This document shows, one piece after another, positions 1-4,982 of a DNA stretch of 64,000 nt. The notes beneath the pieces were generated by a model, which saw only the letters and a program-made list of their open reading frames with translations, had not been told where the DNA came from and searched no databases. This DNA is from an uncultured Roseicyclus sp. (GTDB lineage Bacteria > Pseudomonadota > Alphaproteobacteria > Rhodobacterales > Rhodobacteraceae), in the NCBI GenBank assembly GCA_947489665.1, contig CANLEH010000005.1, positions 124,001 through 188,000 of the forward strand, written 5' to 3'. The position numbers were made by a program, and so were the translations under genes. Within the stretch, counting starts at the first letter, position 1; every line of letters begins with the position of its first letter.

Positions 1-358
1 AGGCGTTCTTCTCGGACTTATAAAGCCCCGGCGCCACGAACCGCCACAACTGATGCGCGATGATCGGGAACGAGGCCGCAAAGCCCAGGATCATGGCGAC
101 GCGTACCAGGACAAAGAAGTATTCCTGCGGCGCGTTGTAGACGATCTGCGTCGGCAGACCGCGCGACTCCAGGATACCGCGCAGGGGTTCGAGGATGAAA
201 TTGTAGGCATCTTCGGCAATGATGAACATCAGCACGAAGCAGACCACAAACGCCATCACCGACCGGATCAGGCGGGTCCGCAACTCGGCCAAATGCTCCA
301 CCAGCGGGGCGGCGCTATCGTCCAGCTCTTCTTCAGGCGGGGTAGAGGTATCGCTCAT
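1..358 (-). CDS. tatC: Sec-independent protein translocase TatC, N-terminal part (cut by window start)
   Basis: TatC is the polytopic inner-membrane receptor for twin-arginine signal peptides. About 119 residues are present; the rest lies beyond base 1. The visible part has an acidic N-terminal tail, the family-typical cytoplasmic motif [12 protein letters not shown], a first membrane helix ([12 protein letters not shown]), the conserved periplasmic loop with PQEYFFV, a second helix, and the start of the conserved segment [11 protein letters not shown]. The ATG overlaps the tatB stop by 4 bp (ATGA), so the two are probably translationally coupled. Identification is secure from sequence and context. 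Confidence 0.95.
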
Positions 359-873
359 GACCGCTCCGGCTCAACATTGGCGGGGCCCGGGTCGGCCGGC
401 TTGATCACTTTGACCGGCCCCTCGGGCGCCTCGGTGTCCGCGGCATAAACCGGCTCCTGCGGCTCTTCCTCGGGCTCTTCCGAGGTTTCAGCCGCCTCAC
501 CTGCCTTCATTGCAGCAATCCGTTCCTTGGTGGCGGCCTGTGCCGCAGCCTTCTTTTCCGCGATGGCGCGCGTGGCGCTGCCTTCTTCGAATTTGGACGG
601 GTCGATGTCATCCATCATATCGCCCATCATGTCCTTGGCCATCGCCTTGGGATTGGCAAATTTGGTGGCCGAGCGCAGGTCCTTCGTCATCTCGGACATG
701 CCGGACTCGTCGGCGGCTTCGTTCATCGCGCTCGAGAATTCCTTGGCCATGTTGCGGACACGGCCAGTGATTTGCCCCAGCTTGCGGAACATTTTCGGCA
801 AGTCTTTCGGGCCCACGACGATCAACGCCACGACCCCGATGACAAGCATTTCCATCATGCCGATGTCTGGCAT
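355..873 (-). CDS. tatB: Twin-arginine translocase subunit TatB
   Basis: This 172-residue protein has the TatB layout: one short N-terminal membrane helix ([22 protein letters not shown]), an amphipathic helix after the conserved G-P-K hinge, then a charged, Ala/Glu/Pro-rich cytoplasmic tail. TatB forms the substrate-receptor complex with TatC. The [18 protein letters not shown] segment is characteristic of alphaproteobacterial TatB. It lies between tatA and tatC on the same strand, as expected for a tat operon, with 40 bp to tatA and a 4-bp overlap with tatC. Confidence 0.95.
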
Positions 874-913
874 AGACCCCGTCCTCCGCCGTCACTTGAA
901 GGGATAGGATCCG

Positions 914-1171
914 TTACGCGTTGTCGCGCTCCGAGCGCTCCTCAGGCGTCACGTCACGTGCGGCTGCGGTCGCATCCTCGACCTCGTCCGAGGCATCCTC
1001 GATCTCGTTTTCCGGCTGCTTCAGGCCCGACCGGAACGAGTTGATGCCCTTGCCGACCTCACCCATCAGACCGGCAACCTTGCCGCGCCCGAACAGGACC
1101 AGAACGACAACGGCAATCAGAACCGCGCCCCATGGACCGATGTTCTGAATAAACAAAGGTGTCGTGTACAT
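914..1171 (-). CDS. tatA: Twin-arginine translocase subunit TatA
   Basis: An 85-residue pore-forming subunit of the Tat system: an N-terminal membrane helix (GPWGAVLIAVVVLVLFGRGKV) with the conserved F-G-R-G-K hinge, an amphipathic helix, and an acidic tail. A longer frame extends 15 codons upstream, but the ATG at 1171 is preceded by a strong ribosome binding site (GGAGGGAG, about 7 nt away) and matches the usual TatA start, so it was chosen. First gene of tatABC. Confidence 0.93.
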   Translation of the reverse strand: MYTTPLFIQNIGPWGAVLIAVVVLVLFGRGKVAGLMGEVGKGINSFRSGLKQPENEIEDASDEVEDATAAARDVTPEERSERDNA

Positions 1172-1289
1172 TTCATTCTCCCTCCGCGAAGCGCACATCC
1201 CGCGCGCGCCGCGCATTTGTCTTTAATTCCCCTGCATAGGTATGGTCTCGGGCCGCCAGATCAAAGCCCAAAAACGCATTTCCTGGGGC

Positions 1290-2447: not shown

Positions 2448-2465
2448 TGTCAAAAATATTTGACA
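2448..2465. promoter_or_regulatory. Palindromic operator 1 (intact)
   Basis: The perfect dyad TGTCAAA-AATA-TTTGACA spans 18 bp. A near-identical dyad is rebuilt when the neighbouring insertion sequence is removed (see 2491-4547), with centres about 43 bp apart, roughly four helical turns. The right arm contains a TTGACA -35 box. It probably binds the XRE-type regulator encoded at 4983-5207; that is inference from position and symmetry. Confidence 0.5.
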
Positions 2466-2488
2466 CTTGCGGGTTCTCTTCCTAGCTA
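2460..2488 (+). promoter_or_regulatory. Candidate sigma-70 promoter, now separated from its gene
   Basis: TTGACA (2460-2465) is followed after 17 bp by TAGCTA (2483-2488), a good -35 box with a poor -10. Before the insertion it would have pointed at the membrane-protein gene now at 4560, with the start codon about 50 bp downstream. The -35 lies inside operator 1, a layout typical of repression. Confidence 0.35.
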
Positions 2489-2490
2489 TG

Positions 2491-2495
2491 TGTCA
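2491..2495. promoter_or_regulatory. Left fragment of operator 2, split by the insertion sequence
   Basis: TGTCA at 2491-2495 plus the target duplication AAGATTTT plus TAACA at 4543-4547 rebuilds TGTCAAAGATTTTTAACA. This dyad matches operator 1 in 13 of the 14 arm positions. The insertion therefore hit the centre of a second operator. Confidence 0.5.
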
Positions 2496-2503
2496 AAGAT
2501 TTT
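2496..2503. repeat. Target site duplication, left copy
   Basis: AAGATTTT here is repeated exactly at 4535-4542 on the other side of the element. Eight base pairs is the length typical of IS1595-family transposition and shows the outer boundaries of the element. Confidence 0.9.
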
Positions 2504-2527
2504 GGCGATTATATACTTGAGAAAGCA
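2504..2527 (+). repeat. Left terminal inverted repeat of the IS1595-type element
   Basis: Perfect 24-bp match to the reverse complement of 4511-4534. On the minus strand it holds TATAAT (complement of 2508-2513), a -10 box that faces outward toward the ABC ATPase gene. Confidence 0.92.
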
Positions 2528-2606
2528 TCGCCATGAATTTAGATGACAACCGACAGGCCGGTATGCAGTCGCTCCTTGTAAGGAGAAGACGATTGCAAAA
2601 CGAAGC

Positions 2607-3395
2607 TCACGAGCCCGGTAGAGCGGCTTGGCACCCTGATTGCGCAACATTCAGTATGTCCAGGCAAGCCGCATGAATTTCCTTGAGGAGTTCAATGGTA
2701 ATCCCCCCGTCAAAATCGCCTGCTCCGTCGGTGGTGAGGTGAAAGAGATATGGCACATCAATATACGGTTTTCGATTGAAAAAGGTCGCAACCTTGAACT
2801 CGTGTTTTCGCCCGATGCGCTTTGGGAAAACATGAAATTCACCGTCCCCTTTTCCAAATCGAGCAGGTCCGGTGATGTGGGCAAATCGAACAGACGGACT
2901 GCAATGGATCCTATGTTTAGCCTTTGCAGCTTTGTTAAGAGCGATGATGAGGTCACCTTTGCTCTCACCCCCATTCTTGGACGGGTAAACTCGGAAAGCC
3001 TTAAAGGTATCCCAAAGCACTTCGGGGAAATCTCTCTCAATTCGTCCGGCGAAGTCCTTCGCGCCATTCTTGGCAATGGGGAAATACAGATTGTCCGGGG
3101 CGGCGCAGCCTGTGACCGCTGTCACGGCGCTACAGGCGATTTGGTCCAAGGAGTGCCGGAGATCGTAAAAACATGTTCCGATCAAATACCGGAGTTTAGC
3201 TGGAACGGGCGCGAATACGATCTTGACGATCTTCTCTCCGGGATTTTTCTTTATTCTCTCGGTGACCATCTTGCCGGGATCGCTGTGATACCAAGCCTGT
3301 TCGAGGGCATCGATGTCACCTATATTCTGCAAGACCTGAGCCAACAAAAACCTAGGACTTTCGAAGGCAGCTATGACTTCGTCGTTTGAAGACAC
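2607..3395 (-). CDS. Passenger protein of the insertion sequence, function unknown
   Basis: A 262-residue soluble protein with no signal peptide or membrane segment. Residues about 70-160 show the pattern of a widespread uncharacterised family: an L-R-H-x-L-D segment (FYDLRHSLDQIACSA), then a short F-P-I stretch (LYFPIAKNGAKDF), then an A-K-A-K-H-R element. Many proteins of that family have LRSALDHL, FPI and DKHR at the same points. It lies downstream of the transposase inside the element, so it moves with it and may serve host or element. No function can be assigned. Its first codons overlap the start of the opposite-strand frame at 3373 by 23 bp. Confidence 0.75.
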   Translation of the reverse strand: MSSNDEVIAAFESPRFLLAQVLQNIGDIDALEQAWYHSDPGKMVTERIKKNPGEKIVKIVFAPVPAKLRYLIGTCFYDLRHSLDQIACSAVTAVTGCAAPDNLYFPIAKNGAKDFAGRIERDFPEVLWDTFKAFRVYPSKNGGESKGDLIIALNKAAKAKHRIHCSPSVRFAHITGPARFGKGDGEFHVFPKRIGRKHEFKVATFFNRKPYIDVPYLFHLTTDGAGDFDGGITIELLKEIHAACLDILNVAQSGCQAALPGS

Positions 3396-3525
3396 AGTGA
3401 AAAACCTCTTGGGAATGAAGCCAAAGCCTCACAAGGAGGACTCGGCTTCATCCAAGAGTCAATCTGACGAGGACCAATCGTCTAAGAGCGCTGCAACCAA
3501 ATTGCGGAACTCAGGCGATTCCTGA
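3373..3525 (+). CDS. Small hydrophilic protein inside the insertion sequence (50 aa)
   Basis: An ATG frame of 50 codons antisense to its neighbours: it overlaps the start of the passenger gene by 23 bp and the last 15 bp of the transposase gene. The N-terminal half, FEDTVKNLLGMKPKPHKED, resembles a tiny uncharacterised family in alphaproteobacteria with the pattern F-E-x-T-V-K-x-L-L-x-x-x-P-K-P-H-K followed by a charged low-complexity tail. The family resemblance is from memory and unchecked. It fills the whole gap between the two known genes of the element, which favours a real gene. Confidence 0.55.
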   Translation: MTSSFEDTVKNLLGMKPKPHKEDSASSKSQSDEDQSSKSAATKLRNSGDS

Positions 3526-4473
3526 GTCAGCCCGCCGATAGGTGAGGCGCTTGCCTTCTGCACCGCGCAGAATTGCTTGCGCGCGCGTCGTGTCGTCAAT
3601 CTCCTTGGCCGCGCGGTTGTTGTAGCGGAAATCAAACTCAGCCGCGTAGCGGTGCAGGTGTTGCTTGCCACAGTGCTGATACACGCCTTTCATGCCGCGC
3701 TTAAAGATGCTGTAGAAGCCTTCGACCGTGTTCGTGTGAACGTCCGGATTCTTGCGCTTCACATACTCGCCAACCTTGTGGCGGACGTGGTCGTGACCAG
3801 CGAAATCCTCGGCAAGCGTGGAATAGTGACGGGCTTCGTCAGTGTAGATGGTGGCCTCCGCTGCGATGTTCTCGCGCAGGATCGGGATAAGCGTGCCCTT
3901 CGTCAGATCATCCACAACGATGGACTTGGCGCGTCCTGTGTCGCGGTCCACGAGGCTTAGAACCTTGTGCTTGTGACCGACACCACCGGGCTTCTTGTGC
4001 GTCTTCTTGGCCTTGCGGTATGCCCTCACACGTTCCTTGTCTTCGCCGATGAAGGTTTCATCCACTTCGACAACGCCGCCACCGCCACCCATGGGCGGGC
4101 CGAAGTCACCGTCGCGCATCGCCTCGCGGATGCGATGGAACATGAACCACGCGGTTTTGTAGGTGACGCCAATCGAACGGTGAAGTTGGTGGGCCGAAAT
4201 GCCCTTCTTTGAGGAAGCCATGAGGAACGTCGCCAGCAACCATTTGTTGAGAGGCACCTTGGAGCGCTCAAAGACGGTTCCGACAGTGACAGTAAATTGC
4301 TTGCGGCAATCGCCACACTGGAAAAGGCCAGGGCGATGCGATTTGCCTTCCAACTTCTTGATCCGATCCACGCCGCCGCAGTGAGGGCAGTAGGGTTCAC
4401 CTGCCCAACGGGTGCGCTCAAGATACTCGCGAGCGGCGTCTTTGTCGGTGAAAATCGGATCTGTCAGGTTCAT
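3511..4473 (-). CDS. IS1595 family (ISXO2-like) transposase
   Basis: A 320-residue transposase. The N-terminus has a zinc ribbon (CPHCGG near residue 29, CGDC near 53), as in the IS1595 family. A short helix-turn-helix-like region follows (GISAHQLHRSIGVTYKTAWFM). The catalytic core has D138 (VEVDETFIGE), D212 (IYTDEARHY) and N248/E251 (HTNTVEGFYSIFKRG), consistent with the family's DDN/E triad, and ends with the YQHCGKQHLHRYAAEFDFRYN-like block. A ribosome binding site AAGGAG lies 8 nt before the ATG. No frameshift or stop interrupts it, so it looks active. Confidence 0.93.
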   Translation of the reverse strand: MNLTDPIFTDKDAAREYLERTRWAGEPYCPHCGGVDRIKKLEGKSHRPGLFQCGDCRKQFTVTVGTVFERSKVPLNKWLLATFLMASSKKGISAHQLHRSIGVTYKTAWFMFHRIREAMRDGDFGPPMGGGGGVVEVDETFIGEDKERVRAYRKAKKTHKKPGGVGHKHKVLSLVDRDTGRAKSIVVDDLTKGTLIPILRENIAAEATIYTDEARHYSTLAEDFAGHDHVRHKVGEYVKRKNPDVHTNTVEGFYSIFKRGMKGVYQHCGKQHLHRYAAEFDFRYNNRAAKEIDDTTRAQAILRGAEGKRLTYRRADSGIA

Positions 4474-4510
4474 GGCTTATCTCCTTGAACCTCATATAGG
4501 AATCCTAAAC

Positions 4511-4534
4511 TGCTTTCTCAAGTATATAATCGCC
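4511..4534 (-). repeat. Right terminal inverted repeat of the IS1595-type element
   Basis: Perfect inverse of 2504-2527. On the plus strand it carries a perfect TATAAT (4525-4530) that points out of the element toward the gene at 4560, about 30 bp before its start codon; no good -35 is seen at the proper distance. Confidence 0.92.
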
Positions 4535-4542
4535 AAGATTTT
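4535..4542. repeat. Target site duplication, right copy
   Basis: AAGATTTT, identical to 2496-2503. It is followed by TAACA (4543-4547), the right end of the split operator 2. Confidence 0.9.
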
Positions 4543-4559
4543 TAACACTGGAGCTTCTC

Positions 4560-4982
4560 ATGACCCCCTATCTCAAAACCTCCGATGCCGTGACCATCGG
4601 GTTTCTGGCCGCGATGTTCTGGCATTTCTGTACTGTTTTCGGTGTGTTCGGATCTGTCCCGGTTGGACAGGAAGACATGATGATCCGCATCTTTGTCATA
4701 CTCGGCATCCTGATCGTGGTGGCATTTCTGGCCGCCTACATCATTCAGATCCGGCAGGGTGGCGCCCCGCTTTTGCCCGATGAACGCGAGGAAAAAATCG
4801 AACGCGTCTCCGAAGGCATCGGGACCTTGACGATCTATATCGGCCTCTTGCTGTTGGCGTGGTTTGCTTTTGCGCCCCTCACGCCCACACAATTCGTCAA
4901 CGGCATGCTCGCTGTGGTCACTGCCGCAGAACTCATCAAGCTGCTCATCGTCTTGCGTCTGCATCGCGCCGAGGTCGGTTAA
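4560..4982 (+). CDS. Small integral membrane protein of unknown function, partner of XRE regulator
   Basis: A 140-residue protein with four predicted membrane helices (residues about 9-32, 41-62, 88-107, 112-132) and a charged loop between helices 2 and 3 (PDEREEKIERVSEG). No family was recognised with confidence. It is followed without a gap by an XRE-type regulator, an arrangement common for small membrane protein/HTH pairs. The ribosome binding site is GGAG 9 nt before the ATG. Its original promoter and operators lie beyond the insertion sequence at 2448-2503, so native transcription is probably lost or replaced. Confidence 0.75.
   Translation: MTPYLKTSDAVTIGFLAAMFWHFCTVFGVFGSVPVGQEDMMIRIFVILGILIVVAFLAAYIIQIRQGGAPLLPDEREEKIERVSEGIGTLTIYIGLLLLAWFAFAPLTPTQFVNGMLAVVTAAELIKLLIVLRLHRAEVG

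What the first reader, a model, noticed from the sequence alone, without database searches (positions are those of the whole stretch)
2448..4560. Insertion sequence sits in the centre of an operator and splits a regulated promoter
Removing the element and one AAGATTTT copy rebuilds TGTCAAAGATTTTTAACA, nearly the same as the intact dyad TGTCAAAAATATTTGACA 43 bp upstream. The target duplication falls in the spacer and inner arms of the second operator. The XRE regulator of the downstream pair probably bound both. The insertion cuts the promoter from its gene and may free the pair from autoregulation.
Basis: partly seen in the sequence, partly recalled or inferred. Interest (0 to 1): 0.72.

Follow-up and report, generated by a model that had tools for sequence, protein, structure and literature searches.

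The report
Mobile element splits a gene-control switch
In a bacterium of the genus Roseicyclus a mobile DNA element has landed in the exact centre of a regulator's likely binding site, a different relative of that element has hit the same spot in another species, and this group of elements appears to favour mirror-symmetric sites of this sort.

Summary
A 2031-bp IS1595-family element (2504-4534; 24-bp perfect inverted ends; 8-bp duplication AAGATTTT) sits in the exact centre of the second of two 18-bp dyads upstream of a membrane-type protein/XRE pair. Relative G001, with the same neighbours and no element, carries both dyads at the same 43-bp spacing; so does contig L032. The 3 of 13 genus genomes with the pair are the only ones with the operator pattern. 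That these are the pair's own operators is well supported by comparison; binding is untested. 'Frees the pair from autoregulation' is not shown: the element separates the pair from its inferred promoter and its transposase reads away, so silencing is as likely.

New here: G006 of the same genus has a different IS1595 element, in opposite orientation, at the same dyad centre. Fifteen other insertions of this clade show AT-rich targets with dyad symmetry peaking at the duplication centre (40 of 90 pairs, against 14-22 at twelve off-centre positions). Best explanation: a target preference for AT-rich dyads, which operators satisfy. That preference alone does not explain two hits on one operator, and selection remains open.

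The parts
2448..2465 (.). Intact upstream operator dyad 1, TGTCAAAAATATTTGACA
   Evidence: identical 18-mer in G001; 0-mismatch counterpart in L032
2460..2465 (+). Inferred -35 TTGACA inside dyad 1
   Evidence: Kept in G001 and L032 with a 17-bp spacer (read by eye); inference
2483..2488 (+). Inferred -10 TAGCTA (TAGATA in G001, TAAGCT in L032)
   Evidence: Kept spacing (read by eye); weak match to consensus, not flagged
2491..2503 (.). Left half of split operator dyad 2 (TGTCAAAGATTTT)
   Evidence: intact counterpart CGTCAAAGATTTTTGACA in G001
2496..2503 (.). Target-site duplication AAGATTTT, left copy
2504..4534 (-). IS1595-family insertion element, 2031 bp, one full-length copy found in the assembly
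2504..2527 (+). Left terminal inverted repeat
4511..4534 (-). Right terminal inverted repeat
3511..4473 (-). Transposase, 320 aa (DDE_Tnp_IS1595 + Zn_ribbon_IS1595)
2607..3395 (-). Passenger region; 262-aa ORF on - (or 249-aa ORF on + at 2640-3389), coding strand unresolved
   Evidence: No Pfam/NCBIfam match; no match in the loci then fetched or on plasmids; codon test undecided
4525..4530 (+). TATAAT in the right end, possible outward -10 towards the pair; no good -35 seen by eye
   Evidence: inference
4535..4542 (.). Target-site duplication AAGATTTT, right copy
4535..4547 (.). Right half of split operator dyad 2 (AAGATTTTTAACA)
4560..4982 (+). Small membrane-type protein, 140 aa (DUF6442 match below its cut-off)
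   Evidence: hydrophobic stretches at residues 10-33, 35-69, 85-110, 112-135; 65% identical in G001 and G006, 41% in L032
4983..5207 (+). XRE/Cro-type regulator, 74 aa, likely repressor of its own operon
   Evidence: HTH_3 5.7e-16; 9k3w 2.3e-13 and CylR2 (1utx) 3.8e-11; 92/80/76% identity in the three relatives

Best explanation
The membrane-type protein/XRE pair is driven by one promoter whose -35 lies in operator dyad 1 and whose start region is covered by operator dyad 2, 43 bp (about four helix turns) downstream; the XRE protein most likely binds both and represses its own operon. An IS1595-clade transposase prefers an AT-rich target that is often a dyad centred on its 8-bp staggered cut. 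Dyad 2 fits that preference, so the element inserted at its exact centre, duplicated the middle 8 bp and left one arm at each junction. The pair is now cut off from dyad 1 and the promoter by 2 kb whose transposase reads the other way; its expression is probably low or rests on the element's end. Shown: the insertion, the conserved dyads, the second hit in G006, the symmetric target bias. Inferred: XRE binding, promoter position, effect on expression.
For: Ends and duplication. Empty site with both dyads at 43 bp and the same AAGATTTT core in G001, whose flanking genes match the window's (97.8% and 93-94% protein identity). Dyads at 43 bp in L032. Operator pattern only in the 3 of 13 genus genomes that carry the pair. 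A dyad 94 bp upstream of the membrane gene in a distant homologue, L010 (1 mismatch; 0 of 1000 mononucleotide shuffles as good). XRE residues 34-50 invariant in 4 of 4. Independent second insertion at the dyad-2 centre in G006. Dyad symmetry at the duplication centre in 15 other insertions: 40 of 90 pairs against 14-22 at twelve off-centre positions; 5 of 15 sites with at least 6 of 9 pairs against 0.3 expected, 0 of 5000 draws. 8-bp AT-rich targets are published for other IS1595 elements (PMC7835479 and PMC12561309, passages seen).
Against: The symmetry is not significant in the inner 4 pairs alone (P 0.13), and 10 of 15 sites show no strong dyad. The matrix from those sites ranks the window target only within the best 0.2-1% of window positions, so preference does not by itself explain two hits on one operator. 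The -10 is weak and one search did not flag the promoter. 11 further loci with distant XRE homologues showed no such dyad within 3 mismatches. No binding or transcript data. In G006 the dyads are only 18 bp apart and the -10 stretch is missing.
Confidence: 0.68

Rival explanations
1. Selection, not targeting: insertion at dyad 2 was kept twice because it changes expression of the pair (release from repression by read-through or an end promoter in G006, or silencing in the window genome).
For: Two independent elements at the same base in the two genus genomes that have both the pair and the clade. In G006 the transposase and the ORFs after it read towards the pair, and the element's own promoter looks good (TTGACA-17-TATATT, read by eye). 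Promoter supply by transposition is documented in Paracoccus (PMC3281130, passages including the abstract).
Against: The two elements lie in opposite orientations and would act differently. The exact central position is not needed for a regulatory effect; any site between promoter and gene would do. Only two cases.
Confidence: 0.25
2. One ancestral insertion at dyad 2, later replaced by a different element or lost in G001.
For: Same position in G000 and G006.
Against: Transposases only 60-64% identical, opposite orientation, different lengths (2031 and 2611 bp), different gene neighbourhoods. G001, which shares both flanking genes with G000, has a clean empty site.
Confidence: 0.04
3. The dyads are not operators of this XRE but a generic AT-rich promoter feature; the insertion is an ordinary AT-rich hit.
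For: All 15 comparison duplications have at most 4 G/C of 8. The operator assignment rests on conservation alone.
Against: Two dyads of one type kept at 43 bp in three loci, one of them on a distant AT-rich contig; presence of the pattern matches presence of the pair in 13 genomes.
Confidence: 0.08

Closest known systems
IS1595 family of insertion sequences (transposase NF033547 / PF12762)
   Same: Transposase domains above curated cut-offs, terminal inverted repeats, 8-bp AT-rich target duplication (AT-rich 8-bp targets in PMC7835479 and PMC12561309, passages seen)
   Different: The clade studied here shows dyad symmetry around the duplication centre. The passages I saw on ISEc69 and ISApl4 report AT-richness and do not mention symmetry; I did not read those papers whole.
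CylR1/CylR2 membrane protein plus small XRE repressor of Enterococcus
   Same: Small XRE regulator homologous to CylR2 encoded next to a small membrane-type protein; CylR1 is described as membrane-bound and CylR2 as a repressor on an operator (PMC5454873, passages)
   Different: Two dyads at the pair's own promoter; no cytolysin-type operon was looked for; similarity of the membrane proteins was not tested
Transposition that changes expression of downstream genes (e.g. Paracoccus elements, PMC3281130, passages)
   Same: An element lands between promoter and gene and may supply a hybrid or outward promoter
   Different: Here the split is at the exact centre of a likely repressor operator, and no expression change has been shown

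Membership tests
IS1595 family | IS1595-type transposase domains | tested here: met
   PF12762 1.2e-34, PF12760 6.8e-11; NF033547 208 bits against cut-off 75
IS1595 family | Terminal inverted repeats and 8-bp target duplication | tested here: met
   24 of 24 and 8 of 8
IS1595 family | Placement in a named subgroup (ISNwi1, ISSod11 and others; names recalled) | not tested
   No ISfinder copy on hand
Autoregulated XRE operon | HTH regulator encoded in the operon | tested here: met
   HTH_3 5.7e-16; adjacency to the membrane-type gene in 4 of 4 loci compared
Autoregulated XRE operon | Conserved inverted-repeat operators at its own promoter | tested here: met
   G000, G001, L032 at 43 bp; G006 at 18 bp; strict pattern only in pair-bearing genomes, 3 of 13. 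It rests on sequence conservation.
Autoregulated XRE operon | The regulator binds and represses | not testable with these tools
   Needs gel shift and reporter
CylR1/CylR2 type pair | CylR2-like small repressor | tested here: met
   1utx 3.8e-11 over residues 9-72 of 74; sequence similarity only
CylR1/CylR2 type pair | CylR1 homology of the membrane partner | not tested
   Only Pfam and NCBIfam scanned; DUF6442 at 20.3 bits, below its cut-off of 25
CylR1/CylR2 type pair | Controls a divergent neighbouring operon | tested here: inconclusive
   A divergent ABC gene is shared by G000 and G001 but has no match in the 6.5 kb fetched around the G006 locus

The most novel reading that the evidence does not exclude
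This clade of IS1595 elements is an operator-seeking transposon group: its transposase recognises dyad-symmetric AT-rich sites centred on the staggered cut, so it repeatedly lands in the middle of repressor or other regulator binding sites and rewires regulation more often than random insertion would, as in the two independent hits on one operator.
Probability: 0.3. Interest if true: 0.68.

Novelty: new member of a known kind. Interest (0 to 1): 0.45.

Why it matters
Elements that prefer dyads would strike regulatory sites disproportionately, giving a mechanistic route from target choice to rewiring of gene control. The locus is a natural experiment: one species with the empty two-operator promoter (G001) and two with independent insertions in opposite orientations (G000, G006). 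It also gives a well-defined candidate operator for a small group of membrane-type protein/XRE pairs of unknown function.

Tried and rejected
Considered and rejected or left open: (a) Attraction by similarity between the element's end and the operator. The G006-type end shares ATATTTGACA with dyad 1, but this is the likely -35 box of the transposase promoter on one side and of the operon promoter on the other, and the window-type end shares less (read by eye; no test run). (b) A wider regulon: the strict pattern occurs once in each pair-bearing genome (dyad 1) and in no other of the 13 genus genomes; looser sites were not searched. (c) Passenger identity: no family match, no plasmid match, neither long ORF matched the loci fetched, and codon usage favours neither strand. 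A short stretch at about 3371-3525 is conserved in the elements of G005 and G220, but in a frame with stops; left open. (d) Pair on plasmids or phages: no match for the membrane-type protein. (e) A two-dyad pattern over 289 class genomes found none; the rows hold neither G001 nor G006 and G000 is split, so it had no positive control and is weak negative evidence. (f) Literature: three phrase searches returned 0 papers (insertion sequence + operator + palindrome + target specificity; insertion sequence + 'inserted into the operator'; insertion sequence + palindromic target + hot spot), as did Roseicyclus + insertion sequence. These are narrow and do not show that the subject is absent from print. 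Searches (24 papers, 15 listed; 1 paper; 15 papers, 8 listed) gave listings. Only PMC7835479, PMC3281130, PMC12561309 and PMC5454873 were opened, and of these I saw passages only.

Rows dropped: of 18 complete elements, the two operator cases were held out and L068 was dropped for lacking a duplication (3 of 8), leaving 15. Elements whose ends did not fit the end pattern (for example L081, with a different end), transposase hits for which no paired ends were found, and single ends were not used in the symmetry test.
Full report
What is there. The window lies in an assembly of 4,132,185 bases in 11 contigs. At 2504-4534 there is a 2031-bp element with 24-bp perfect inverted ends and an 8-bp duplication AAGATTTT. 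Its 320-aa transposase (3511-4473, minus) belongs to the IS1595 family well above the curated cut-offs. One search found one full-length copy; a second, distant IS1595-type transposase (32% identical) lies elsewhere in the assembly. The rest of the element holds overlapping ORFs on both strands with no family match; neither strand is favoured by codon usage.

The dyads. Upstream of the element stands TGTCAAAAATATTTGACA (2448-2465). The duplication is the central 8 bases of a second dyad, TGTCAAAGATTTTTAACA, split by the element. The dyad pattern is above chance in the window (5 matches against 0.34 expected; all 5 are at this locus, two being the same palindrome on both strands and three lying at the junctions of the split dyad).

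Relatives. Of 61 genomes searched, 3 encode the membrane-type protein (G000, G001, G006), and of 394 family genomes only G000 and G006 (G001 was not in that draw). G001 has the same neighbours on both sides (ABC protein 97.8% identical, downstream protein 93-94%) and no element: TGTCAAAAATATTTGACA, 25 bases, CGTCAAAGATTTTTGACA, then the gene. Spacing (43 bp) and the AAGATTTT core are as in the window. L032, on a 4.1-kb AT-rich contig labelled Flavobacteriales, encodes the pair (41% and 76% identity) with TGTCAAATATATTTGACA and TGTTAAATATATTTAACA, again 43 bp apart. The strict operator pattern occurs in 3 of 13 genus genomes, exactly the three with the pair, once in each (dyad 1). In two distant homologues a dyad lies upstream of the membrane-type gene: L010 at -94 with 1 mismatch (0 of 1000 shuffles as good) and L011 at -117 with 3 mismatches (1% of shuffles as good) (mononucleotide shuffles). 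L012 has a 2-mismatch dyad that I did not place against a gene start. Eleven further loci with XRE homologues (L013-L018, L026-L030) had no such dyad within 3 mismatches; L019-L025 were not scanned, and I did not check whether these homologues sit next to a membrane-type gene.

Promoter. Between the dyads TTGACA (in dyad 1) is followed at 17 bp by TAGCTA (window), TAGATA (G001) or TAAGCT (L032), read by eye. This is a sensible promoter with dyad 1 over the -35 and dyad 2 over the start region, but the -10 is weak and the consensus scan did not report it (1 site found elsewhere, 1.5 expected). It is inference.

A second hit on the same operator. In G006 the ABC neighbour has no match within the 6.5 kb fetched, and the two dyads are adjacent (18 bp between centres; the stretch with the -10 is missing). 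A 2611-bp element with the related end GGCGATTGTATATTTGACAAACC sits at the centre of dyad 2...TGTTAAAAATTTT, element, AATATTTTTGACA... (duplication 7 of 8). Its transposase is 60-64% identical to the window's and reads towards the pair, opposite to the window. The two insertions are therefore best read as independent. In the genus, close relatives of this transposase occur in G000, G006 and G005 (3 of 13). G005 gave no match for the membrane-type protein or the XRE and its element sits at AAATCAAT. So both genus genomes that have both the clade and the pair have the element in that operator.

Target preference. The end pattern occurs in 22 of 394 family genomes. From fetched regions I could read 18 complete elements: the two operator cases, one without a duplication (L068, dropped) and 15 others. 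The 15 duplications have 0-4 G/C of 8. Complementary pairs within 6 bases on each side of the duplication centre number 40 of 90, against 14-22 at the twelve off-centre positions from -6 to +6. Against positions with the same G/C count in flanking DNA: P 0.13 for 4 pairs, 0.008 for 6, 0.0016 for 9; with one of two identical 8-mers removed 0.29, 0.019, 0.005. Five of 15 sites have at least 6 of 9 pairs, 0.3 expected (0 of 5000 draws). An earlier run with the window as background gave 0.12, 0.006 and 0.0034. The TAACCTTA-type targets in L071, L078 (the same element as L048) and L124 (a single end) lie in flanks with no blastn match to each other; tblastx gave only short scattered matches between L078 and L124 (its output was cut). 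The sample is small and mixed: the other ten sites are mostly A- or T-rich runs without strong symmetry. A position matrix from the 15 sites scores the window target at or above all but 143-616 of about 61,940 window positions, and the G006 target at or above all but 0-7. Extrapolated to 4.1 Mb this leaves of the order of ten thousand or more equally good sites in G000, so preference helps but does not by itself predict two hits on one operator. Local effects (bent DNA, supercoiling, bound repressor) or selection may add to it.

Mechanism and effect. Most likely the XRE protein, similar to CylR2, represses its own operon through both dyads, perhaps with the membrane-type protein as its sensor, as described for CylR1/CylR2 (PMC5454873, passages). 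After insertion, dyad 2 is split and the promoter is 2 kb away from the gene. In the window genome the transposase reads away from the pair; a TATAAT lies in the right end 30-35 bases before the start codon, without a good -35 (by eye). In G006 the element's likely promoter (TTGACA-17-TATATT, by eye) reads towards the pair. The effect could thus differ: low or end-driven expression in one, read-through in the other. None of this has been measured.

Verdict. The claim of release from autoregulation is open. As a kind of event it is ordinary: an IS1595 element in a regulatory region. What lifts it above ordinary is the exact recurrence in a second species and the symmetric target signal, which make dyad-seeking by this clade directly testable.

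Noticed in passing
window 4560-4982 against L006:1501-1920 (G001): The membrane-type protein is only 65% identical between G000 and G001 although the XRE is 92% and the flanking genes 93-98% identical: it has diverged or been replaced far faster than its neighbours.
   Followed up: no
L031:340-364 and 2976-2988 (G006): The two dyads of the pair are adjacent (18 bp between centres) and the stretch with the -10 is missing, so the native promoter may be lost and the element may now be the pair's source of transcription.
   Followed up: partly
L071:3915-3922, L048:1416-1423, L124:195-202: Elements of the clade inserted in the same TAACCTTA target (in L071 and L048 within TTAACCTTAAC) at loci without DNA similarity; it resembles overlapping TTAAC half-sites of the CtrA kind (resemblance recalled, not tested).
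   Followed up: partly
window 2607-3395: Passenger region of the element with long ORFs on both strands, neither with a family match and neither found on plasmids.
   Followed up: partly
L032 (WFNC01000426.1): A 4.1-kb contig labelled Flavobacteriales carries the same pair and both dyads; it may be mis-binned or show lateral transfer.
   Followed up: no
window 355-1216, minus: Two small genes that look like Tat translocase components near the locus (recalled resemblance, not searched).
   Followed up: no
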